From a halophilic archaeon SHRA6 (GTDB lineage Archaea; Halobacteriota; Halobacteria; Halobacteriales; Haloferacaceae), in assembly GCA_005239175.1 (NCBI GenBank), contig ML241294.1, forward strand, positions 693,275-757,274: DNA of 64,000 bases, read 5' to 3'. How positions within the stretch are numbered: position 1 is the stretch's first letter; every line of letters begins with the position of its first letter. The notes under the pieces were generated by a model. That model had not been told where the DNA came from. It ran no database searches and saw only the letters and a program-made list of their open reading frames with translations. The translations under genes were made by a program, and so were the position numbers. Positions 11,794 to 27,873 of the stretch are shown here, piece after piece.

Positions 11794-12030
11794 TCACGGG
11801 TCAGCTACTAATTTCCACAGGAGTGCATTTCCGACTTTCTGGCTCTCGATATTCCCCTCCTCTTCAAGATTTTGTAACTTCAGATACGCTGTCCGTCGAT
11901 CACAACCGACGTAATCCGCCACGTCTGTCGTCCCGGTCGCGCCGAGTTCCTCAAGTGCCCGGAGAAAATCTTCCCGAGGATACTCCTCGCTGAACCGACC
12001 ACTGCTCTCGTCACGCTTCCGGTCGCTCAT
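11794..12030 (-). CDS. small winged-helix transcription regulator
   Basis: A 78-residue DNA-binding protein. After a charged leader, residues 18-70 form a winged helix: FLRALEELG, TTDVADYVGCDRRTAYLKLQNLEEEG (recognition helix) and a short wing ending in ALLWKL. This is a common haloarchaeal type used for local control of plasmid or defence genes. It diverges from the RAMP operon, with a strong TATA box in the 170-base gap between them. The simplest model is that it regulates that operon, itself, or both. No ligand-binding domain is present. Target and direction of control are not known. Confidence 0.75.
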   Translation of the reverse strand: MSDRKRDESSGRFSEEYPREDFLRALEELGATGTTDVADYVGCDRRTAYLKLQNLEEEGNIESQKVGNALLWKLVADP

Positions 12031-12095
12031 ATTTACGACATTGGTTGCAGTTTACTAATGATTGCTGGGATGATTTCCATTAGTCGAACGACCAA

Positions 12096-12110
12096 AGGTT
12101 TATATATACT
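12096..12110 (+). promoter_or_regulatory. TATA-box promoter of the RAMP operon
   Basis: AAAGG followed by TTTATATATACTG is a clear archaeal BRE/TATA arrangement. Transcription should begin about 25 bases downstream, near 12128-12132, leaving an untranslated leader of about 80 nt, which is unusual in haloarchaea where leaderless mRNAs dominate. Confidence 0.65.
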
Positions 12111-12163
12111 GCAGTTTAAAAGATGGTTGTGAACTCAGCCAGAGGGCATGAATCAAAAAAATG

Positions 12164-12190
12164 CCCAGGTGTTGTAGCACCCAGGCTGGG
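12164..12190 (+). other. hairpin in the leader of the RAMP operon
   Basis: CCCAG (12164-12168) pairs with CTGGG (12186-12190), and inside it GGTG pairs with CACC around a TTGTAG loop. It lies in the predicted 5' leader just upstream of the first start codon. It could be a control structure or a lone repeat-like RNA hairpin. No second copy was seen in the window. Confidence 0.4.
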
Positions 12191-12213
12191 TTCCAAATCT
12201 GGTGCAAGAACCC

Positions 12214-12837
12214 ATGAAAAATTCAAATACAAAAGCACAAGAAGGCATCGACAAATTATTCATTGAAGATATAAACCAGTTGGAACATATCGCTATCGGG
12301 GAAGGGGCCGAGACCTGTCATGTATGTGACGAACCTGTGCAGGAAGGAGATTCGGTTGCAGTATACGTTAGTCGCGTGATTTCGACGATTCCGTATACTG
12401 TCGGTCCAATTTTTTGTCAAGAACACAAGACTACTGCTGAGATGACGTGCTTCCGCGATCGGCGCGAGCTGATCGTAGGTGGGCGCGTTGGGACGGTGAG
12501 TGACGCGGCGATGCAGTCCACGTATTCCGTACTGCTGGCTCCGGAGGTGGAGCTGGTGAGCCCGATCGGCTCACGTGAGGCATACACACAGGGGGAATAC
12601 GCAGCGCTGCGGGCGCAGTCACTGCGTGCTGACGGAAGTCATCAGATGAGCGTTAGCGGGATCGACGAGCAAGCGCACGAGACACAGACAGCGCACCCCG
12701 ATTCAAGGGGTATGCATTGCGAGATACCTAGTCCGGCGATCGAGCAGGGGATGGCATCAAATACCGACCCAGCCGTCGAACAGACCGTACCTGACGGAAA
12801 TGACGGAGATGACGTGATAGGGGGTGATGCAGCGTGA
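12214..12837 (+). CDS. zinc-binding protein, first gene of RAMP operon (Csf1-like?)
   Basis: About 207 residues. The N-terminal half has a CHVCDEPVQEGD knuckle followed some 30 residues later by a FCQEH pair, giving a CxxC...CxxH zinc site. The second half is low-complexity and rich in Gly, Asp and Ser. Type IV Csf1 proteins are of similar size and also carry a zinc finger, so it could be the small or large-subunit equivalent here, but sequence similarity is not evident to me. I use ATG 12214; a GTG at 12202 is in frame. It overlaps the next gene by four bases (GTGA), which indicates a translationally coupled operon. Confidence 0.6.
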   Translation: MKNSNTKAQEGIDKLFIEDINQLEHIAIGEGAETCHVCDEPVQEGDSVAVYVSRVISTIPYTVGPIFCQEHKTTAEMTCFRDRRELIVGGRVGTVSDAAMQSTYSVLLAPEVELVSPIGSREAYTQGEYAALRAQSLRADGSHQMSVSGIDEQAHETQTAHPDSRGMHCEIPSPAIEQGMASNTDPAVEQTVPDGNDGDDVIGGDAA

Positions 12838-13853
12838 GACCAGCCGACGCGGACGGCTTCGAGACGGCACACTTGGATGGTGAATACGACCTGCCGGCGC
12901 TGTCGGAATCGACATTTCCCAAGGTCTACATCGGGATGGATGCGGACTTGCTTGCGCCTGGCGACGGGATCGTGACGGATCGCCATCATGCGTCGGCGGA
13001 TCGCTACGAGGCGGATGATCCGATGAATCAGATTGGCGGGCAGATATCGTCGTTTGCGCTGTCGGGATGGCTGCGCCACGCGTGTGAGCGCGTACTACAG
13101 ATGGGCGGTTCGACGGCCTGTCACCCTGGTGAGCCAAACGCGGATTACAAGCGCGCGAACGTGTACGAACGCGACCTCGACGCGGGCTATCACGAGAAAG
13201 GATCCTGCGTTGATGAGGGCGATAGCGACACGGGCTGTGTGGTGTACGAGCTGTTTGGTGGCTTTGGGTCGAAGCCAGGCGAGTTGATCCGGCATCCGGT
13301 GTCGTTCTCGCCGGTGCGCCGGCAGGTGGACGTGCTGCGTGGCGAGGCAGAAGCGCATTTCCGCCAGTTGCACACGCAGGTGCGATCGCGGAATGAGGCC
13401 GATGGGGGGCAGCCGTTGCGGCATGCGACGCGTGATGTCGTCGGGAACCTCGAAGGAACGTGGTTGCTCCAATTGCGATCTTTGCGCCCAGAATTTGTTG
13501 GCTTGCTGATCGAGGCGGTGTCGTTTTTGGACGCCTACAACTCTAAGTACGAGTTTCAGCTTGGCGGCGCACGGAATTTCGGCGCGGGTATCGTGGATGT
13601 CGGGCTGGTAAATCCGCTGTACACCGATCGAGAGATTCGCCGAGTGTACAATCGCGCGCAGAAGCCGACAACGGCGATGAGGACAAAAGACACAAAATGG
13701 CGAGATGTGTACCGCAAAGAGTTCGTGCGGGCCTTACAAGAATCGCTGAGCGACGAGGATGGCGAGCTGCCGCCAGCGATCGACGGTGCCAGTGCTCGTG
13801 GAAATGACAGTGACTCGCGTGCCGCTGACGATACGCAGGGTGATGGCCAATGA
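12834..13853 (+). CDS. Cas7-like RAMP protein (Csf2/Csm3-type)
   Basis: A 339-residue protein with features of Cas7-type RAMPs. ISSFALSGWLRHACERVL corresponds to the PGSSLRGALR helix. CVVYELFGGFGSKPGELIRHPVSFSPV matches the CxxCxLFG...R..V/F.D region that follows. EFQLGGARNFGAGIVDVGLVNP is a typical glycine-rich RAMP loop. Such subunits form the crRNA-binding backbone in type III and IV effectors. It starts with GTG at 12834, overlapping the upstream stop, and ends in the ATGA overlap with the next gene. No Cas10, Cas1/2 or repeat array is nearby. The assignment to the RAMP superfamily is fairly secure; the exact type is not. Confidence 0.72.
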   Translation: MRPADADGFETAHLDGEYDLPALSESTFPKVYIGMDADLLAPGDGIVTDRHHASADRYEADDPMNQIGGQISSFALSGWLRHACERVLQMGGSTACHPGEPNADYKRANVYERDLDAGYHEKGSCVDEGDSDTGCVVYELFGGFGSKPGELIRHPVSFSPVRRQVDVLRGEAEAHFRQLHTQVRSRNEADGGQPLRHATRDVVGNLEGTWLLQLRSLRPEFVGLLIEAVSFLDAYNSKYEFQLGGARNFGAGIVDVGLVNPLYTDREIRRVYNRAQKPTTAMRTKDTKWRDVYRKEFVRALQESLSDEDGELPPAIDGASARGNDSDSRAADDTQGDGQ

Positions 13854-15040
13854 GTGGTGACGGGGAGGGGGGCCTCCCGAGTGAGATTGGCGAGGAAAAT
13901 GAAGATTTCCCGAGCAAGATTACGAAGGGAGAGGGGGGTGCCCCGAGTGAGATTGGCGAGGAAAATGAAGAGTTCCCGAGCAAGATTGGGAAGGGAGAGA
14001 GGGGTGCCCCGAGTGAGCCTGGCGAGGAAAATGAAGATCTCCCGAGCAAGATTGCGAAGAGAGAGGGGGGCCTCCCGAGTGAGACTGGTGAGAGTGGCGA
14101 TGGGGAGGGGGGTCTCCCGAGTGAGGAAATTGGCGGAACCGAGGCAGATCCATTGGTCGCGGTGTACCGCCACGACGTGCACAAGTTGCGTGGTCGGGAA
14201 CACACAGCCGCACACGACGAGTGGTATGGCGTTCGCGTCAACGAGGATGTCCCGCTGGGTGCAGATCGGGATGCAGCGGTATTGAGTCGGCCACGGGGCG
14301 AGCCCGAGCAGACGGTGTCGAATCATGCGTCGCCGTTCCGATTATCCCTCGTCACCGGTGAAGCGATGGCCGAGTCTGATCGGATCTTGGCAGCGACGGA
14401 CGGTGGATTCCGAGAGCTGATTCAATCTGACGATCCGGCAGAGTTGCATGCAGCGTGGCTCACGAGCGACGTCGCGGCGGCGTTCAACGAGTCGATATTC
14501 TACCCATATTCCTCGCTAAAATACCACGTGTTGCTGGCGGGTGCCTTGTTGTCGGCATACCGCGACGGCTACGCGTTCGAGGATCTGTATGTGGCGGTGA
14601 CGCCCGGTGAGGCGGCTGCTGAGACGAGGACAGCAGCAGCGGCGAGGGCGAGCGAGGCGGTGACGTCGTTTGAGACGGTATTGTGGTCGCCGACGTTGAC
14701 GATCGATTTGACGGCAGCCCCCGGCGATCGACCAGCAGCGTCACTGGGCCCGGCTCCGGCGCGATCGTTTGCGGACGTGTGGTCGCGGCTCCCAGCCCAT
14801 CCGTTTCAGGTGGACGACGCACGCCTGCGGATGGTCGTGGATGCACAGCTTCGGCGGATTCGATCGTGGTCGGTGGCCTTGCAGTTCATCGAAGAAGTGT
14901 CGGGAGATGGCATGCGCCGATCGCTGGCTGGCGAGGGCCAGCATGTCCTTATGGCTCCCAAGAATTCTGGCAGTGGCGGAGAGACGGATCCAACATCGCA
15001 GTCACGTCGTTCGAGTGGATCTGATGGGGGTGATCGATGA
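13850..15040 (+). CDS. unknown operon protein with N-terminal 22-residue repeats
   Basis: A 396-residue protein in the middle of the RAMP operon. Residues 5-93 are more than three tandem units of 22 residues (consensus EGGLPSEIGEENEDFPSK plus four), acidic and probably disordered. From about 100 onward there is a globular part that I do not recognise: AVYRHDVHKLRGREH, a long alanine-rich helix region (220-255), and a DDARLRMVVDAQLRRIRSWSVALQFIEE helix near the end. Its position between Cas7-like and Cas5/6-like genes suggests an effector subunit, perhaps the large or helical (Cas8/Cas11-like) one. It could also be an accessory protein. Four-base ATGA overlaps join it to both neighbours. Confidence 0.6.
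   Translation: MSGDGEGGLPSEIGEENEDFPSKITKGEGGAPSEIGEENEEFPSKIGKGERGAPSEPGEENEDLPSKIAKREGGLPSETGESGDGEGGLPSEEIGGTEADPLVAVYRHDVHKLRGREHTAAHDEWYGVRVNEDVPLGADRDAAVLSRPRGEPEQTVSNHASPFRLSLVTGEAMAESDRILAATDGGFRELIQSDDPAELHAAWLTSDVAAAFNESIFYPYSSLKYHVLLAGALLSAYRDGYAFEDLYVAVTPGEAAAETRTAAAARASEAVTSFETVLWSPTLTIDLTAAPGDRPAASLGPAPARSFADVWSRLPAHPFQVDDARLRMVVDAQLRRIRSWSVALQFIEEVSGDGMRRSLAGEGQHVLMAPKNSGSGGETDPTSQSRRSSGSDGGDR
13862..14130 (+). repeat. in-frame 66-bp tandem repeat
   Basis: CCCCGAGTGAG-like landmarks recur exactly 66 bases apart (near 13879, 13945, 14011 and 14077), and a shortened unit follows. Each unit codes for 22 residues. Differences between units are few, so the expansion is recent or kept uniform. 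Confidence 0.85.
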
Positions 15041-16017
15041 GCCGGATCCAACAGGTTCTGTTCCAATTGGACGCCGAGTACTATGGCCATCCGTACTACG
15101 TGACCGGGAATGCGCTGTACAATGCGATCGCTCAGCGAGTTGAGTCGGCGACACGACGAGCGATGTGCGTGAGCCACGGTGTCTTCTTGCCGGGCGAGTA
15201 CGGCTCGTATCCGGCGTGGCACTCACAGAGCGGGTCGCTCGGCAAGATCGGATCGGAATTACCGCCGGTCGAGTCCTACGAGGACTTGTTTCTGTTACGG
15301 GACGCCGCACACCGGTGGTTGAAATCGTCACGGCCGCGTGATGTGCACAATGCCCATCCGATGCAGACCCACGGCGGTCGAGTGACGTTTGCGCCTGTGA
15401 CCTGGTTTGGCCGACCGCCCGAGTTCGCTACTTCAAAACGTGGTGTGCGGTGGTACGTCCACTGTTATTTGCATGCTGGCTCGGCCGTTGATGATGGGAT
15501 CCTGCCGGTGCCGGCAGAGGTCCTCGATGGATTGCAGGTTGGCGGCGGACGCAACTACGGATTTGGCGCACTGTCGCACGTAGACTCACAGCTGATCGAT
15601 ACCGACGAGTTGTCGTTCGATCGAGTGGCCGCGGCTGATGAGCACGTCATAGAGCTCATCTCGCCGTTTGTGACTGCGAGTTCCTATCCTGGTGCTGATG
15701 ACCAGTCAGTGCCGTGGTGGTGGGACGTGGCTCGCTCAGACGCACCTAATGGCCGCGTGAGCGACTCGACGACTGAGCCGACACGAGATGCGAGCGATGG
15801 GCTGCGCCGGCGCGCAGAGCGGCTGGCTGCCGATGGATCAGTGTATGAGATCGAGACGATCGATCACGGCCAACGCGTCGGCTATGCGGGCGATGCGCCA
15901 ATTGAGACAGCGAAGAATGGCGTGCTGCGGATCGGGACGCATGCACGATATGGCTTCGGTGAGCTTTGGCTCCGGCCGGCGAGCGATGATCGTGTTTCTG
16001 ATCGAGGTGATCACTGA
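15037..16017 (+). CDS. RAMP protein with two glycine-rich loops (Cas5/Csf3- or Cas6-like)
   Basis: A 326-residue protein closing the operon. It opens with a beta strand and helix of ferredoxin-fold type (QQVLFQLDAEYY then TGNALYNAIAQRV). The central LQVGGGRNYGFGALSHV and C-terminal GTHARYGFGELWL are G-rich loops characteristic of Cas5/Cas6-family RAMPs. A His-containing GVFLPGEYGSYPAWHS stretch precedes the first loop, but I cannot identify a catalytic triad, so crRNA processing is uncertain. It could be the Csf3/Cas5-equivalent that caps the 5' end of a guide. ATG at 15037 overlaps the stop of the repeat-bearing gene. A 110-base gap separates it from the HNH gene downstream. Confidence 0.68.
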   Translation: MSRIQQVLFQLDAEYYGHPYYVTGNALYNAIAQRVESATRRAMCVSHGVFLPGEYGSYPAWHSQSGSLGKIGSELPPVESYEDLFLLRDAAHRWLKSSRPRDVHNAHPMQTHGGRVTFAPVTWFGRPPEFATSKRGVRWYVHCYLHAGSAVDDGILPVPAEVLDGLQVGGGRNYGFGALSHVDSQLIDTDELSFDRVAAADEHVIELISPFVTASSYPGADDQSVPWWWDVARSDAPNGRVSDSTTEPTRDASDGLRRRAERLAADGSVYEIETIDHGQRVGYAGDAPIETAKNGVLRIGTHARYGFGELWLRPASDDRVSDRGDH

Positions 16018-16128
16018 GGCAGGTAGCTCGACGGCACTGAGACGATCCACCCGGGAATTCAATTGAAGCGATACACCACAGGATAGCTACCCGGCGACGC
16101 GATTACCAACGACTACGATAGACCGATC

Positions 16129-17193
16129 ATGGCTACAAACAATACCGCCGATCAGACCCGCGACGAGTTGCACCGAAAACAGACCGAAGCTACCGATAGT
16201 GCTGAATCCGAAACCTCGGACCCAGACAATTGCCATAGCACCGTGAGCCAACAGCGCCAATCTGAGGTGTTAGACCGCGACGGCCATCAATGTCGGATTT
16301 GCGGCCGGCTTGGGCCCGAGCGTGGCGGACTCGCTTCGCTGCACATCCACCACATCGAACGAAACCCAGACAACATCGACGAAGACGATCCACAAAATCT
16401 GACGACGCTGTGTCGATCCTGCCATAATTGGATCCATCTGCGATCGACGCCGGCCGACTCGCCCACACCGCTGACCGACACAGACTTGAATGTGCTGCTG
16501 CCCCAGGATATCGAGATCCTGCAGTATCTAGCAGATCAAGGGCCGGCGCGTACGGGCGATATTGTATCCGCGCTAAATATCGATTTGTCCGTCGCAGCCG
16601 TCCGCGAACGGCTGTGGACACTGATGGGCTTGGATAATATCGTCGAATCGCGTGATCAACAGATCGTGGATAAGGACATCGAAACGGGTGAGTGGGGGCT
16701 CTCTGAGCAGATCGAAACTTCAGCTCGGGGGCACGTCCCCGATGACCCGCGGCTATTGATACAGCGATTTGAGGATGAACAGGTGCGACAGGCCGTAAAT
16801 CGCGGTATTAGCCGTGATGCGATCATGGATGTCTTAGACGTATCGCGCCGAACAACGTTCAACAAGGAGAAGCGCGCCTGTGCCTTCGGATTCCCGCTCA
16901 GCGTGTTTTTGCATGGCAATCGAGAGTCGGCAGATCGAGACGTCAGCCGCGACGACAGTAGTGGTGAGCCTGAGCCTGAGTCGGCTGACGGCGACCAACA
17001 GCGGACACTCGCTGAAACGCTCAACGACGATCTCGAACCAATCGAGACCTGGGGCGTAGTTGATGGGCTCAGCACCGCTGAGACAGACTCGATGGCTGCT
17101 GATGAAGATCAGCGAGAAGCCGATCGAACAGCACTGCGCGAGAAGCTCCACGCCGCGATTGACGCACTCGAAGCCGCAGACACTGCGCTGTGA
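16129..17193 (+). CDS. HNH endonuclease with winged-helix domain
   Basis: A 354-residue protein. Residues 40-105 are a complete HNH module: RDGHQCRICG, LHIHHIERNPDN (the His-His pair) and NLTTLCRSCHNWIH, with four zinc-binding cysteines. A winged-helix-like block follows at about 118-165 (ILQYLADQGPARTGDIVSAL). A further helical DNA-binding segment (GISRDAIMDVLDVSRRTTFNKEKR, about 224-250) resembles a recombinase-type HTH. The tail is acidic. Such HNH-HTH proteins occur on haloarchaeal plasmids and proviruses. It follows the RAMP operon on the same strand and has similarly high GC compared with the AT-richer flanks, suggesting a shared origin; whether it acts with the RAMP proteins is unknown. 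Confidence 0.82.
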   Translation: MATNNTADQTRDELHRKQTEATDSAESETSDPDNCHSTVSQQRQSEVLDRDGHQCRICGRLGPERGGLASLHIHHIERNPDNIDEDDPQNLTTLCRSCHNWIHLRSTPADSPTPLTDTDLNVLLPQDIEILQYLADQGPARTGDIVSALNIDLSVAAVRERLWTLMGLDNIVESRDQQIVDKDIETGEWGLSEQIETSARGHVPDDPRLLIQRFEDEQVRQAVNRGISRDAIMDVLDVSRRTTFNKEKRACAFGFPLSVFLHGNRESADRDVSRDDSSGEPEPESADGDQQRTLAETLNDDLEPIETWGVVDGLSTAETDSMAADEDQREADRTALREKLHAAIDALEAADTAL

Positions 17194-17424: not shown

Positions 17425-18612
17425 ATGGGTTCACCGAAACGCGATTTCTTTCGTTATATCGATGGAGAGGAATCGCAAACAGACTTTTTTGTTTCGTTGC
17501 TTGATCAGACGGACACTGCTCGGGTCCTCAACGCAATCCACGGTGATCTCAAATTTGACGATAGTGCCTACGTGAGGGCAACCCAGCGTGACGGGCTTCC
17601 TCATCATCCGGATCAGAACGATAAACGACGGACAATTGACTGGGTTGTCGAGGACGATACGAAACTCGTTGGGTACGAGTCAAAGACTGGTACTGACTCG
17701 CTTTATCCCAAACAACTACGCGAAGAACGCCGAAAGCTCGAACACAATGCCGGCAGGAAGGATGTCTACCTGTTCGGCATAACAGAGGACGTACACAAAC
17801 CTGACTTCGATGCCGATGCAACGTGGTTGAGTTGGTTCGACGTTGGAGCGGCAGTAATCGATATTGAGAACAAATCAGAAGCAATTGAGATCATGTCCGA
17901 TCTATTCAAACACAAGGGTTACGAGGGCTTCACCGGATTCGCACCGTTCGAAAGAGACGAAGCTTGGTTCATTACGCATCAGAATGATGCAGTCGATCTC
18001 GCATTTGAGGTAGATAAATATGCAGATGGGCTATCTCTCTATACAAAGAGGACGAATCATACAGACTTCTACAATCGGGCCAAGCGAAACCTCAATAAAA
18101 TTAAAAAGAACGACCACCATTCGCTCGGACCCTCCTACTACATTTTCGCGTACCAACCGGACGAGTACTTCGGCGATGCAGATACCGATTACAACACCTC
18201 GGGTGGAGTTGGTTGGTATCTTGCGATCGTTGTCCCTGCACTACAGAACGAGGTCTACGTCCATCTAAACACCTATCTCAGCAAGGACGATACTTCGAAG
18301 AAATTCTTCAACCAATACTCGAAACAGATTGCCCGACTTATCGAGGAAAACGACATGGAACTCCATGCCTCTGCGAATAGCCTATTCTCTGAAAAGAGTC
18401 CAACCAGCCATACGGATTCTGAAGAGATCAGTGCATTAATCGAGAATGAAGGTGGTAAAGGCCGGTTCAAGCGATTCCGTATTGGTTGGGAGGTAGACAC
18501 AAACCAATCTCCTGAGGATATCGTTGAGGACGTGACGGAGAAGATAGAGGAACTTCACGAGATTTTCTACAATGGTGTTGAACGCCGAACGGAGTATGCA
18601 GAGATCGATTAG
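17425..18612 (+). CDS. putative PD-(D/E)XK nuclease-type protein
   Basis: A 395-residue acidic protein, not assigned to a named family. Residues 72-95 read IDWVVEDDTKLVGYESKTG: an Asp ending one strand, then an E-S-K in the next, as in PD-(D/E)XK restriction-type nucleases, followed by a helix with Gln (LYPKQLREERRKLEH). Beyond that is a DVYLFGITEDVHKP strand. The C-terminal 200 residues are unassigned, with aromatic-rich stretches (YYIFAYQPDEYF, GGVGWYLAIVVPAL). It is a single gene with gaps and relic IS ends on both sides. Within this cluster of nucleases a defence role is likely but unproven. Confidence 0.6.
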   Translation: MGSPKRDFFRYIDGEESQTDFFVSLLDQTDTARVLNAIHGDLKFDDSAYVRATQRDGLPHHPDQNDKRRTIDWVVEDDTKLVGYESKTGTDSLYPKQLREERRKLEHNAGRKDVYLFGITEDVHKPDFDADATWLSWFDVGAAVIDIENKSEAIEIMSDLFKHKGYEGFTGFAPFERDEAWFITHQNDAVDLAFEVDKYADGLSLYTKRTNHTDFYNRAKRNLNKIKKNDHHSLGPSYYIFAYQPDEYFGDADTDYNTSGGVGWYLAIVVPALQNEVYVHLNTYLSKDDTSKKFFNQYSKQIARLIEENDMELHASANSLFSEKSPTSHTDSEEISALIENEGGKGRFKRFRIGWEVDTNQSPEDIVEDVTEKIEELHEIFYNGVERRTEYAEID

Positions 18613-24726: not shown

Positions 24727-25857
24727 GTGAACGGTTGTATGCGTATCTTCCAATCTAGTTCCATAAAAAAATCCCCGACAGCGATGCCAGCAAAAGAGCG
24801 ACCGATTTTACCTGCTGGTGATGAAGGAGGAGAGGGTGATGGCAAACTAGAAGAATGGCTTAATGCGTCGCCAGATACCATTCTCGATGAGCGATTATTA
24901 CTCTTCGCTCGGCAACCTAGTCTCCCGACCGGCGAAGCTGATTTGATCGGTCTCGATCGGTTCGGTAATTGTGTTGTGGTCGAAATTAAGATGGGTACCT
25001 CCGGATCTAAGTCCGCCTCCGAGGCGAGTATTGTTAGCCAACCTCAATTGTACGCACAGGCCCTCGACAGATTCAGTTACCATGATCTAGACGCACTCCG
25101 TGAGGAATACGTCGCCAAAGGTTGCGTAGTCCCATCAGAAGTCGCGCAACAAGACTCGCTAATTGGAGCTTTCAATTCGTTTTTCGACAAGGACCGAGAC
25201 CCTTGGGAACTCAATCAGGGACAGCGGATGGTCATCGTCGCAGAGCGCATTACGCCCCAGACTCGTCAGTCTACACGATGGCTTCGAGACCAGGGGCTTG
25301 ACATCCAAGCTGTAGAACTCCAACGGTTCGACCTTCCATCTGGTGAGACTTGTTTTGGAGCCGTGACCATCGTTGATTACGACGAAACCCGTTCACGACA
25401 ACCTACGCAGTCGAAGCCTGGTGATCGGGTTTTCACAATCGGGGTATTCACCAAGGCATTCCCCCATCTGCAAGATATTTTAAGCACTGATCATATGGAC
25501 TCCGTTCTCGGAAATCTCACGACTAACTACCCGTATCTCGAATCGAGAGCGCCTGGTCATCCAAATGCTGTCAGATACGCGTTACGGGTAAATCCCTACG
25601 GGGACAACGAAGTGAAGGTTGCAATCGATGCGTCGGGTGATGGGAGTTCATCTGCGGTGAAAACCATTCAGAAGCACCGCAATCGATTTGAGGAGCGGAA
25701 TTTCTTAGTTAGCGAGCGAGAATCGTTGCGAATTGTGGTGGACACATGGGAGAATATCGAGATCGCTGATCTTCGACGAGATGCATTTATTGAGCGGGTC
25801 GCGGCTCGATACATCGAGTTAGTCGAACTATCTCATACGATATTTGATTCAACCTGA
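24727..25857 (+). CDS. NucS/RecB-like PD-(D/E)XK nuclease-type protein
   Basis: A 376-residue protein with a classic nuclease core near the N-terminus: LEEWLNASPDTILDERLLLF, then TGEADLIGLDRFGNCVVVEIKMG with the Asp and the E-I-K of PD-(D/E)XK, and a following QPQLYAQAL helix with the conserved Gln. This is the layout of NucS/DUF91-type enzymes that act on single-stranded or branched DNA. A VIVAERITPQTRQSTRWLRDQGLDIQAVEL segment completes the fold. The C-terminal 150 residues are unassigned. Start ATG 24727 is used; ATG 24784 would remove 19 residues outside the core. It sits as a single gene between two direct repeats, as expected of a transferable cassette. Confidence 0.75.
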   Translation: MNGCMRIFQSSSIKKSPTAMPAKERPILPAGDEGGEGDGKLEEWLNASPDTILDERLLLFARQPSLPTGEADLIGLDRFGNCVVVEIKMGTSGSKSASEASIVSQPQLYAQALDRFSYHDLDALREEYVAKGCVVPSEVAQQDSLIGAFNSFFDKDRDPWELNQGQRMVIVAERITPQTRQSTRWLRDQGLDIQAVELQRFDLPSGETCFGAVTIVDYDETRSRQPTQSKPGDRVFTIGVFTKAFPHLQDILSTDHMDSVLGNLTTNYPYLESRAPGHPNAVRYALRVNPYGDNEVKVAIDASGDGSSSAVKTIQKHRNRFEERNFLVSERESLRIVVDTWENIEIADLRRDAFIERVAARYIELVELSHTIFDST

Positions 25858-26158: not shown

Positions 26159-26455
26159 CTACTGATCTTCTTTATCCGACAGCCGGCTCGACAGGCGATC
26201 GAATCGGTCCTGTGCAGCTGCTTTTCGATCAGCGGTCTGGTCTGGTTCGTACTCAATCTCTTGTAGTACTCCATCTTGCACCGTCACAGTAAGGATCGCG
26301 TCAGCGTGTCTGCCTTCCGTCGGCAACACGTCCTCATCAACGAGAGCGCTGCCAACATCAGTGCCGTCGGCTTCAAAAAAGACTCTGGCGAGATCGTCTT
26401 CGATCGCATCGACAACGGCGGTGTAGGTGCCATCCGCCACATCAATCTCTGTCAT
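26159..26455 (-). CDS. DUF3006-type protein
   Basis: A 98-residue acidic protein beginning MTEIDVADGTYTAVVDAIED. The opening strand pair, DLARVFFEADG and a hydrophobic ILTVTVQDGVLQEIEYEPD strand match DUF3006, a small beta-rich family often found next to ComEC-like metallo-beta-lactamase proteins. The C-terminus is a charged helix. ATG at 26455 overlaps the stop of the upstream MBL/lamin-tail gene by one base (TAATG), so the two are translationally coupled. No signal peptide is present, so it remains in the cytoplasm, unlike its partner. The biochemical function of the family is unknown. Confidence 0.85.
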   Translation of the reverse strand: MTEIDVADGTYTAVVDAIEDDLARVFFEADGTDVGSALVDEDVLPTEGRHADAILTVTVQDGVLQEIEYEPDQTADRKAAAQDRFDRLSSRLSDKEDQ

Positions 26456-27873
26456 TAGTATGTCTCCTCTAGCACAACAGCCCCATCGTCATCGCGGACA
26501 ATGACTGTATCGCCGTCATTATTCCACACTGGTGATCCTGAACCCCAGAATAATTCTGTCTCAGTGTCCGTCCCGCTTCCCGTTCGCAACGTGATCGTCG
26601 CATTCGGCTCTACCTCAACACCAGCAGGGAACGTGTACGATCGCCCTGCCGCATCTTCGACAGTCCACCCGCTCAAATCAAGCGGCTCGCTTCCCATGTT
26701 CTCAAACACGACGTACTCATCATTGAGATTTTCTCGATCATCGCCTTCAGCGTCAGCATTGATTTCTGCAATGCTGAGCTCCCCATCAGCAGTCGAATCA
26801 TCATCACCGGAGTCATCTTCCTCGGCGTCTTGATCAATTGAGACAACCTCATCAGATCCCGTAATACGGGTTCGCTCGACAGGGTCTGGTCCCGTTGCTG
26901 GTTCGATTGGCTCACCATCGCGGAGCTCCGATGAGTCTGTCGGCGCATCTTGTTGGGTTTGAATACTCACGTTCGTCCCATCACTGACAAACACGGTATC
27001 GCCGTGTGTGGCGGTCCACATTGTCGGGATCGATCGTTCGCTGAGACGCGCTAACACTTCATCGTGAGGATGTCCATACTGCGAGTCATAAGCACTAGAG
27101 ATAACAACGGCCTGCGGTTGGGCAGCGTCAAGCAGTGCATCACTTGTTGAACTCGATGAGCCGTGGTGGCCAGCCTTCAGGACCGTCGCTTGCAGTTCGT
27201 CGCCGTACTCATCAACAAGGTATTCTTCTTGTTCGGCTTCCGCATCACCGGTCAGCACAAAGCTCGTCGTCCCGTGTGTTAATTTCAGCACGATGCTGTT
27301 TTCGTTCCTGTCTTCGTCCGCAAGATACGGGTCGGGCGGGCCAAGCACATTCACATCCACGTCATCAAAGTCGATCGTGTCGCCCTCTCGGGTCTCATAC
27401 AGTGTGACCTCGTGAGCTTCAATCGCATCAAGATACTCTGAGTACGTGTTTGTGCTGGCCGTAATCCCAGGGTCGTACACCGCTCCGATACCGTCTGCCT
27501 CAGTTTCGTAGTGCTCGATGATCGCTGCATTGCCCCCGATATGGTCAGCATCGCCGTGTGATGTCACCAAATGATCAATGCGATCGATCTCATGTTGACG
27601 CAGATACGCTAACACATGTTCACCGTCGTCGTTGTAGTGCCCTGTATCGACGAGCATCGTCTCCCCATCCGGCGAAATTATGAGCGTACTCACTGATTGG
27701 CCGACATTGATATAGTGAACTTCGAGCGAACCGACACTCTCTCCCGACGACTCGACAGGATCTGAAGTGTTGTCCGTACTCCCAGTATCGCCCCCTGAGA
27801 GTCCGCCCGCACAGCCAGCGAGGAGCACAATAACAACGATGAGCCCGATACGACTCGCGTCTCTGAGTGACAC
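26455..27873 (-). CDS. secreted lipoprotein: ComEC-like metallo-beta-lactamase with lamin-tail domain
   Basis: A 472-residue exported protein. A short N-terminal hydrophobic segment ends in LLAGCAGG, a lipobox, so it is probably a lipid-anchored surface protein. Residues 50-310 are a metallo-beta-lactamase fold of the ComEC/Rec2 C-terminal type: TSHGDADHIGG metal motif, LTGDAE and KAGHHGSSSS. An acidic spacer follows. The last 110 residues are a lamin-tail (LTD) beta-sandwich: LSIAEINADAEG, EYVVFENMGSEPLDLSGWTVED and WNNDGDTVIVRD. Such proteins are thought to be extracellular nucleases, perhaps for DNA use as nutrient. The start is GTG at 27873. The operon continues with DUF3006. Confidence 0.85.
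   Translation of the reverse strand: MSLRDASRIGLIVVIVLLAGCAGGLSGGDTGSTDNTSDPVESSGESVGSLEVHYINVGQSVSTLIISPDGETMLVDTGHYNDDGEHVLAYLRQHEIDRIDHLVTSHGDADHIGGNAAIIEHYETEADGIGAVYDPGITASTNTYSEYLDAIEAHEVTLYETREGDTIDFDDVDVNVLGPPDPYLADEDRNENSIVLKLTHGTTSFVLTGDAEAEQEEYLVDEYGDELQATVLKAGHHGSSSSTSDALLDAAQPQAVVISSAYDSQYGHPHDEVLARLSERSIPTMWTATHGDTVFVSDGTNVSIQTQQDAPTDSSELRDGEPIEPATGPDPVERTRITGSDEVVSIDQDAEEDDSGDDDSTADGELSIAEINADAEGDDRENLNDEYVVFENMGSEPLDLSGWTVEDAAGRSYTFPAGVEVEPNATITLRTGSGTDTETELFWGSGSPVWNNDGDTVIVRDDDGAVVLEETY

What the first reader, a model, noticed from the sequence alone, without database searches (positions are those of the whole stretch)
12164..16017. CRISPR-less RAMP operon of type IV/III-like make-up
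Seen: four overlapping genes (GTGA, ATGA, ATGA): a zinc-binding protein, a Cas7-like RAMP (SGWLRHACERVL, ELFGGFGSKPGELIRHPVSF, GGARNFGAG), a repeat-bearing unknown and a RAMP with two G-rich loops (VGGGRNYGFGALSH, HARYGFGELWL). Known: Cas7 plus Cas5-type RAMPs and a zinc-finger Csf1 are the minimum of type IV effectors. Inference: this is a guide-RNA-binding effector without adaptation genes, helicase or local array, perhaps using crRNAs from elsewhere or another small RNA. The third gene has no counterpart that I recognise.
Basis: partly seen in the sequence, partly recalled or inferred. Interest (0 to 1): 0.88.

Follow-up and report, generated by a model that had tools for sequence, protein, structure and literature searches.

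The report
Haloarchaeal CRISPR-derived RAMP operon (HRAMP)
This is a haloarchaeal version of a known, stripped-down CRISPR relative called HRAMP; its unrecognised third protein looks like a shrunken Cas10, and its messenger RNA carries conserved signals that may hint at how it gets its guide RNA.

Summary
In detail: four overlapping genes at 12214-16017, followed by an HNH gene. This is not a new kind of system but HRAMP (haloarchaeal RAMP), described in 2019 as an array-less, type III-derived set of Cas7, Cas5, an unknown protein and nucleases. Gene 2 has relatives in 101 of 391 Halobacteria genomes. Gene 4 matches Cmr3 in 37 of 37 members. Type IV is not supported.

It keeps HDxxK in 38 of 38; GGDD is missing in 37 of 38. 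No sequence profile supports this link. (2) Relatives, not the window, hold an 18-nt repeat series in an open frame before cas5, conserved as nucleotides in three reading frames. (3) An 18-nt element containing ATTGAAGC, the H. volcanii crRNA 5' handle, precedes HNH in 42 of 44 HNH loci and is absent from 7 of 7 loci with the other nuclease gene. The operon leader is a covarying RNA, but widespread.

What guides HRAMP, if anything, is unknown; this genome has no Cas1 or Cas6 match.

The parts
11794..12030 (-). small HTH protein (TrmB-like), divergent from the operon, probable regulator
   Evidence: Pfam TrmB E 2.9e-4, below the gathering score; 35 of 54 clade A loci have a match, upstream on the opposite strand where printed
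12132..12216 (+). structured leader RNA (three-way junction) of the operon
   Evidence: model R1, 73.2 bits; this sequence is one of the 48 that built the model. Covariation. No Rfam match there. Not HRAMP-specific
12214..12837 (+). gene 1: protein with conserved cysteines, possibly zinc-binding
   Evidence: C35 and C68 invariant, C38 in 90% or more of 26 aligned sequences; no Pfam, NCBIfam or PADLOC Cas match
12834..13853 (+). gene 2: Cas7-like RAMP
   Evidence: PADLOC Csm3 E 0.0019; 12 of 30 aligned sequences match that model at E <= 0.01. 43 PDB fold matches at E <= 0.001, all class 1 or Cas7-11 effector entries by title except 7x8a_A, whose title says only 'a bacterial protein complex'
13850..15040 (+). 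gene 3: compact Cas10-like protein with HDxxK motif, no GGDD
   Evidence: AlphaFold2 model of 14144-15037, pLDDT 86; Csm1 Z 12.3; motif counts. No sequence-profile match
13865..14092 (+). 66-nt tandem repeats (3.5 copies) in the N-terminal extension of gene 3, encoding acidic ...PSE(I)GEENE(D/E)FPSKI... repeats
   Evidence: translation
15037..16017 (+). gene 4: Cas5 (Cmr3)-like RAMP
   Evidence: PADLOC Cmr3 E 3.2e-7; 37 of 37 aligned sequences match
16061..16078 (+). conserved HNH-linked element AATTGAAGCGATACACCA, containing ATTGAAGC
16129..17193 (+). HNH endonuclease (weak HTH_23 match at 223-244, E 0.13), the nuclease partner of this HRAMP locus
   Evidence: Pfam HNH E 1.7e-8; 44 of 54 clade A loci

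Best explanation
The operon is a member of the published HRAMP family: a strongly reduced type III CRISPR effector without array or adaptation genes. Most likely gene 3 (a compact Cas10 with a retained HD motif but no cyclase motif), gene 2 (Cas7 backbone) and gene 4 (Cas5, expected to hold the 5' end of an RNA) form one ribonucleoprotein, and the neighbouring HNH (in relatives also an RNase H-like or PD-DExK-like) nuclease does the cutting, as an antiviral or anti-plasmid defence. Shown here: gene order, family matches, predicted folds of genes 2 and 3, spread, nuclease linkage, no Cas1 or Cas6 match in this genome. Inferred: that the proteins form one complex, that it binds RNA, that it is defensive. 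Not known: the guide RNA and the target.
For: Cmr3 match in 37 of 37 aligned gene 4 sequences. Csm3 matches and the Cas7-type fold list for gene 2. Cas10 fold for gene 3 with RHD.HK in 38 of 38. The make-up given for HRAMP in passages of PMC8730458 (Cas5 and Cas7 homologues, nucleases, uncharacterised proteins, Haloarchaea, somewhat closer to type III) and PMC12669027 (array-less, derived from type III, mostly HNH and PD-(D/E)xK nucleases) fits on the points tested: 44 of 54 clade A loci have HNH and 8 of 54 the alternative gene. No Cas1 or Cas6 match in the window's genome.
Against: The founding 2019 paper could not be read, so identity with its accessions was not checked. Gene 3 is linked to Cas10 by fold and a short motif only: no Cas10 profile match in 38 sequences, no PDB sequence match, the Csm1 profile run over the own genome hit another place and not gene 3, and Foldseek's own figures are weak (best E 0.03; TM 0.21-0.40 and rmsd 9-18 for ranks 1-23). 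The gene 2 model is of middling confidence (pLDDT 69). No experiment showing a complex, bound RNA or defence was seen.
Confidence: 0.92

Rival explanations
1. HRAMP supplies its own guide: the operon mRNA is cut into short RNAs at tag-like elements (the CACTGGAAACGGGGTGTG series before cas5 in relatives, and ATTGAAGCGATACNCCA before HNH), and the Cas5-like protein holds these tags as it would a crRNA 5' handle.
For: The 18-nt motif is conserved as nucleotides in three reading frames (37, 5 and 13 copies). In 12 genomes picked because they carry it, all 33 sites lie within 2.6 kb of a gene 2 match. The HNH element is in 42 of 44 HNH loci, all 21 exact copies of its core in 391 genomes lie within 4.1 kb of a gene 2 match (in G053 that match is a weak fragment), no frame is regularly open across it, and it contains ATTGAAGC, the handle reported for H. 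volcanii P1 crRNAs (passages read).
Against: The HNH element goes with HNH, not with the RAMPs (0 of 7 loci with the other nuclease gene). The repeat series is in 18 of 52 clade A loci and not in the window. No conserved pairing around the HNH element (own -17.2 against permuted -17.6 kcal/mol). No clear excess of targets near the locus for its constant part (21 against 16.4 expected). The stretches between repeats are partly conserved and the one locus tried found no plasmid match. The motif resembles the sequence just before the cas5 start codon, so it may have a translational role.
Confidence: 0.14
2. The conserved elements are cis-regulatory signals of the operon: leader RNA and pre-cas5 element tune translation, and the HNH-linked element is an operator or RNA site for the HNH protein or another regulator. 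HRAMP itself binds cellular RNA without a dedicated guide, or none.
For: All three lie upstream of genes. The leader is shared with many other genes (matches in 218 of 391 genomes). The HNH element follows the HNH gene and not the RAMPs.
Against: Does not by itself explain the repeated copies inside a translated frame, or that all sites found lie at HRAMP loci.
Confidence: 0.55
3. Type IV-like effector with a Csf1-type zinc protein, using crRNAs from other arrays.
For: The gene 2 fold also fits type IV-A chains (Z 11.1, tied with SsoCsm at 10.8). Gene 1 has conserved cysteines.
Against: Sequence matches are to type III Cmr3 and Csm3. A Cas10-like protein is present. No Cas6 match in this genome, and a Cas6 match in only 22 of 50 genomes with clade A HRAMP (hand count).
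Confidence: 0.04

Closest known systems
HRAMP (Makarova et al. 2019, FEMS Microbiol Lett fnz079; reference seen in PMC8730458, paper itself not held)
   Same: Haloarchaea; diverged Cas5 and Cas7; unknown conserved protein; HNH or PD-(D/E)xK nucleases; no array; closer to type III
   Different: Added here: gene 3 has a Cas10-like predicted fold with HDxxK; conserved RNA-level elements. This window's copy lacks the RNase H-like gene and the repeat series before cas5
Type III effector (Csm/Cmr), Cas10 (Csm1/Cmr2)
   Same: Cas10-like, Csm3-like and Cmr3-like subunits
   Different: The conserved part of gene 3 is under half the size of the Csm1 chains it matches (298 against 616 or more residues) and lacks GGDD; no Cas6 match or array in this genome. 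Other type III partners were not searched for
Type IV-A (Csf1-Csf3)
   Same: Small class 1 set; Cas7 fold of gene 2 alignable
   Different: No Cas match for gene 1, none of the four genes has a helicase match, type III sequence affinity
s479 sRNA of Haloferax volcanii (PMC8155600, passages read)
   Same: Non-array RNA bearing the ATTGAAGC handle
   Different: s479 is encoded beside cas genes, appears to be matured by Cas6 and bound by Cascade; the element here also occurs in genomes without a Cas6 match and shows no conserved pairing of its flanks

Membership tests
HRAMP | diverged Cas7 homologue | tested here: met
HRAMP | diverged Cas5 homologue | tested here: met
   37 of 37 aligned sequences match Cmr3
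HRAMP | uncharacterised conserved protein in the same operon | tested here: met
   gene 3 in 53 of 54 clade A loci and 10 of 10 clade B loci
HRAMP | HNH or PD-(D/E)xK-type nuclease neighbours | tested here: met
   HNH at 16129-17193. 44 of 54 clade A loci HNH, 8 of 54 the alternative gene, called PD-DExK here by eye: two of these proteins scanned, no Pfam match. 0 of 10 clade B loci by these queries
HRAMP | no CRISPR array or adaptation genes at the locus | tested here: met
   no Cas1 match in the genome; no match to a typical repeat; the tandem repeats found in 12000-16300 lie inside genes 2 and 3
HRAMP | restricted to Haloarchaea | tested here: inconclusive
   the 31 loci of the genome-contig scan are haloarchaeal by title, or in L058 an uncultured archaeon, but that scan finds close relatives only
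HRAMP | identity with the accessions listed in the founding paper | not testable with these tools
   paper not held
Cas10 family (gene 3) | overall Cas10 fold | tested here: met
   Z 12.3, rmsd 4.2, 239 aligned; all 50 rows are type III Csm or Cmr entries with chains of 616-976 residues, taken as Cas10 by size and title. Foldseek alone is weak
Cas10 family (gene 3) | HD motif | tested here: met
   RHD.HK in 38 of 38; its equivalence to the Cas10 HD signature is from recall
Cas10 family (gene 3) | GGDD cyclase motif | tested here: not met
   1 of 38, in the C-terminal tail only
Cas10 family (gene 3) | sequence-profile match to Cas10 | tested here: not met
   0 of 38; none in the PDB profile search
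Type IV CRISPR-Cas | Csf1 large subunit | tested here: inconclusive
   gene 1 has no Cas match in Pfam, PADLOC or NCBIfam at E <= 1; its only match is PDC-M05B, E 0.053. No fold test was done for gene 1
Classical CRISPR array (repeat series of relatives) | identical repeats with unrelated, foreign-derived spacers | tested here: inconclusive
   18-nt repeats recur at 24-145 nt (one 291), 32 of 37 spacings multiples of 3; flanks partly conserved; no plasmid match for one locus tried

The most novel reading that the evidence does not exclude
HRAMP is not guide-less. Its own operon mRNA carries hidden guide precursors (a repeat series embedded in a translated frame before cas5, and an ATTGAAGC-tagged element before HNH) that are loaded by a miniature type III complex of mini-Cas10, Cas7 and Cas5, in hosts that need neither Cas6 nor a CRISPR array.
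Probability: 0.13. Interest if true: 0.93.

Novelty: new member of a known kind. Interest (0 to 1): 0.6.

Why it matters
HRAMP has been a puzzle since 2019: CRISPR-type RNA-binding proteins with no visible guide RNA. If gene 3 is a compact Cas10, HRAMP becomes a complete miniature type III effector (large subunit, backbone, cap), with a predicted HD nuclease and no cyclic-nucleotide signalling. The conserved RNA-level elements give concrete places to look for guide or regulatory RNAs, and small-RNA sequencing in a culturable haloarchaeon could decide it.

Tried and rejected
Type IV membership: the sequence evidence points to type III. crRNAs from other arrays in this genome: no Cas1, Cas6 or typical repeat match. 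Cas6 matches are in 22 of 50 genomes with clade A HRAMP, against 131 of 391 overall (counted by hand from the listings).

Repeats of the window as a CRISPR array: they are in frame in gene 3 and encode acidic repeats; relatives have a different repeat at a different place. The repeat motif of relatives has no match in the window; the four best sites in the genome have 3 mismatches in 18. As an ordinary protein-level repeat: the same 18 nt are read as TGNGV, HWKQG or LETGC in different copies. Divergence by codon position 1, 2, 3 was 0.077, 0.032, 0.05 in one frame class and 0.09, 0.013, 0.103 in another, so not clearly third-position.

HNH element as part of a conserved hairpin: flank pairing is no better than in permuted pairs (1553 of 2000 permutations at least as strong). 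As protein-coding: the three frames from -60 to +60 are open in 0, 9 and 9 of 42 loci. Targets of its constant part near the locus: 21 against 16.4 expected. A counterpart before the other nuclease gene: 10-mers of L036, one mismatch allowed, recur in at most 4 of 8 upstream stretches. Complementarity between repeat and HNH element was considered by eye and dropped, since variant elements such as that of L032 show no matching variation. Exact HNH element in viral contigs: 3 stretches; only L138 was looked at, an unrelated phage, so taken as chance. With one mismatch in 391 genomes, 9 of the 24 matches lie away from any gene 2 match (by hand).

Leader RNA as HRAMP-specific guide: rejected, since its model matches 218 of 391 genomes. 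Sequence link of gene 3 to Cas10: none. No Csm1 over the cut-off in 145 Halobacteria to compare with; the 93 genomes with weaker matches are hit, in the listed rows, in the N-terminal part of the model, which I take as other HD proteins. HRAMP in viruses: none for gene 2 in the phage records; a gene 4 scan of viral contigs found no relative.
Full report
What is there. Four ORFs run 12202/12214-12837, 12834-13853, 13850-15040 and 15037-16017 on the + strand, each overlapping the next by four bases (GTGA, ATGA, ATGA). An HNH gene follows at 16129-17193 (Pfam HNH E 1.7e-8). The window lies in a 3.36 Mb genome of five contigs, 99% complete; Halalkalirubrum salinum is 98% identical in gene 2. The neighbourhood is defence-like: a PLD/SNF2 helicase (PADLOC 'HKD+Snf2', E 1.6e-78) and a type IIG-like restriction-methylase (E 1.4e-68) lie upstream.

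Gene families. Gene 4 matches Cmr3, the type III Cas5 (E 3.2e-7); 37 of 37 aligned sequences match the same model. Gene 2 matches Csm3 weakly (E 0.0019); 12 of 30 aligned sequences match that model, and the best Csm3 match of any of them is E 2.7e-6. An AlphaFold2 model of gene 2 (30 sequences, pLDDT 69, pTM 0.73) gives 43 PDB matches at E <= 0.001. By title these are type III Csm, type IV-A and type VII complexes and Cas7-11/Craspase, save 7x8a_A ('a bacterial protein complex'); the best is SsoCsm, E 2.8e-6. VIA-align gives Z 11.1 to a type IV-A3 chain and 10.8 to SsoCsm, which are tied. So the RAMP reading is right, and by sequence the affinity is type III.

What went into the alignments. 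From the non-redundant references (lists capped at 45) I used 30 of 31 for gene 2, 38 of 45 for gene 3, 37 of 45 for gene 4 and 26 of 43 for gene 1. For the leader I used 48 of 52 distinct sequences, leaving out L052, L085, L096 and L100.

Gene 3. The conserved part (window 14144-15037, 38 sequences in all) gave a confident model (pLDDT 86, pTM 0.84). Foldseek alone is weak (best E 0.03, 0 matches at E <= 0.001), but ranks 1 to 23 are all type III-A Csm or Csm1 entries by title, with chains of 632-801 residues; unrelated folds begin at rank 24, E 1.0. VIA-align gives Z 12.3, rmsd 4.2, 239 aligned residues to T. onnurineus Csm1, and all 50 listed rows are type III Csm or Cmr entries with chains of 616-976 residues; I take these chains as Cas10 by size and title. 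The motif RHD.HK is present in 38 of 38 sequences, and GGDD in 1 of 38, in the C-terminal tail. The motif resembles the HD..K signature of Cas10 HD domains (recalled, not from a call). Against this: no profile or PDB sequence match, and the Csm1 profile run over the own genome hit another place (C3) and not gene 3. I read gene 3 as a compact Cas10 that kept the HD site and lost the cyclase; the link rests on fold and motif.

Known system. PMC8730458 (passages read) describes haloarchaeal RAMP, HRAMP, citing Makarova et al. 2019: diverged Cas5 and Cas7 with nucleases and uncharacterised proteins, somewhat closer to type III. PMC12669027 (one passage read) calls HRAMP and ARAMP array-less, derived from type III, most often with HNH and PD-(D/E)xK nucleases. 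The locus fits on the points I could test. The founding paper is not held. In the library searches, two papers describe HRAMP, and two more (PMC8406640, PMC11640852) appear in the listing as holding the 2019 reference; I did not open them. Searches for Cas10 with haloarchaea and RAMP, and for a structured leader RNA in haloarchaea, showed nothing on these points by their listings. From memory, the 2019 abstract speaks of 'an uncharacterized conserved protein'.

Spread and anatomy. Gene 2 has matches in 101 of 391 Halobacteria genomes, in a close clade (A, about 60-100% identity) and a farther one (B, about 50-56%), plus a few more distant or broken copies. From 71 loci plus the window, 64 had distinct gene 2 sequences: 54 clade A and 10 clade B. 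Of the 54: gene 1 in 54, gene 3 in 53, gene 4 in 52, an RNase H-like gene in 46, HNH in 44, and in 8 an alternative gene that I call PD-DExK by eye (two of these proteins scanned, no Pfam match). The 10 clade B loci have genes 2-4, none of the nuclease genes by these queries, and gene 1 in 2. The gene at 17425 is in 1 of 54 (the window) and so not part of the system. Gene 2 is also on 21 plasmid records and on no phage record.

Guide question. In the window's genome there is no Cas1 match, no Cas6 match and no match to a typical repeat at up to 3 mismatches. Among 50 genomes with clade A HRAMP, 22 have a Cas6 match at E <= 0.001 (hand count), against 131 of 391 overall. So HRAMP occurs without a host Cas6 match.

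Repeat series in relatives. In 30 of 52 clade A loci with genes 3 and 4, these genes lie 150 nt or more apart. In 28 of those 30 one frame stays open across the whole gap and ends in an overlap with the gene 4 start; L034 has its only earlier stop at -2, and L051 is not open. In 18 of the 52 loci this gap holds 55 copies (up to 3 substitutions) of CACTGGAAACGGGGTGTG. Spacings are a multiple of three in 32 of 37 cases, most often 48. The copies fall in three reading frames (37, 5 and 13) with the same consensus but for one base, so they encode TGNGV, HWKQG or LETGC: the constraint looks to be on the nucleic acid. In 12 genomes chosen because they carry the series, 33 of 33 sites (up to 1 mismatch) lie within 2.6 kb of gene 2, and the reversed control has none. 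A similar sequence stands directly before gene 4 in many loci (by eye), so a translational role is possible. The window itself has no copy.

HNH-linked element. GATTGAAGCGATACNCCA (up to 4 substitutions) lies between gene 4 and HNH in 42 of 44 HNH loci (missing in L034 and L037), in 0 of 7 loci with the other nuclease gene (an eighth, L039, lacks gene 4 and was not tested), and in L087, where no HNH was found. In 41 distinct sequences each base of TTGAAGCGATA is kept in 37 or more, while most flanking positions carry under 0.6 bits. No frame is regularly open across it (0, 9 and 9 of 42). In 391 genomes all 21 exact matches of the 17-nt core lie within 4.1 kb of a gene 2 match (in G053 only a weak fragment). 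With one mismatch there are 24 more, of which 9 lie away from any gene 2 match; the reversed pattern has 5 at up to one mismatch (positions compared by hand). ATTGAAGC is the 5' handle of H. volcanii P1 crRNAs and of sRNA s479, which appears to be matured by Cas6 and bound by Cascade (PMC8155600, passages read). Against a guide: the element tracks HNH rather than the RAMPs, shows no conserved pairing of its flanks and no clear excess of targets near the locus. The 8-nt identity was noticed after the fact.

Leader RNA. The 5' leader (window 12132-12216) folds as a three-way junction. In 48 aligned leaders 78.5% of cells pair, against 28-43% when slid; 14 of 19 pairs show changes on both sides; helix 2 is the weakest, with 56% paired. 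On the model-fitted alignment, which leans towards the structure, the figures are 83.7% and 17 of 19. The model finds the leader in 54 of 55 clade A loci searched, most of which built the model (L096 missing), and strongly in one clade B locus, L055. No Rfam family matches there. It is not HRAMP-specific: 218 of 391 genomes match at E <= 0.001, with up to 11 matches per genome, which is also the number of candidates scored per genome, so counts are lower bounds. I fetched 40 copies lying away from clade A gene 2. One (L164) is beside a clade B gene 2 and one (L161) near a gene 4-like piece; several precede gene 1 relatives, and most precede other small proteins, many with paired cysteines (by eye).

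Judgement. The finding is real but is the known HRAMP system. The Cas10-like fold of gene 3 and the RNA-level elements are additions that I did not find in print by the searches named above; the founding paper itself I could not read. They make the open question of an HRAMP guide testable; they do not answer it.

Noticed in passing
window:12132-12216; loci L140-L199: A covarying three-way-junction leader RNA with no Rfam match has matches in 218 of 391 Halobacteria genomes (up to 11 each, a lower bound), before many small genes, several cysteine-rich (SWIM-like CxCPD...CKH, CxxC, by eye). Looks like an undescribed haloarchaeal cis-regulatory RNA family.
   Followed up: partly
L047:1987-2271; L049:10930-11214; L035, L086, L091 and others: A small acidic reading frame between genes 2 and 3 in many loci encodes two copies of a motif like LDELxxPxxELRxxQE; the window instead has PSE/PSKI repeats in the gene 3 extension. 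Possibly repeated interaction motifs.
   Followed up: partly
L039, L160, L167, L176: Apparent deletion derivatives: loci that lack genes 3-4 or 2-4 but keep leader, gene 1 or a relative, and a nuclease gene; L039, L160 and L167 keep a copy of the repeat motif.
   Followed up: no
L043, L044, L046, L100 (gap between genes 3 and 4): A Halorubrum group has a different, longer repeat in the same gap (CGATATGGTCGTGCGGTGAGTC...), encoding AIWSCGESxGRT-like units (by eye).
   Followed up: no
window:3174-10634: PLD/SNF2 helicase (PADLOC HKD+Snf2) facing a type IIG-like Eco57I methylase; the same pair stands beside HRAMP in L036 (82% and 66% identical), so the two systems may sometimes travel together.
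   Followed up: partly
window:1016-2152, 24727-25857, 26455-27873: Other defence-like genes by PADLOC: an HNH restriction-type protein, a PDC-S11-like protein and an LmuA-like protein.
   Followed up: no
L055:9005-9096: A clade B HRAMP locus carries the same leader RNA (77 bits) before a different first gene, so the leader can be exchanged between genes.
   Followed up: no
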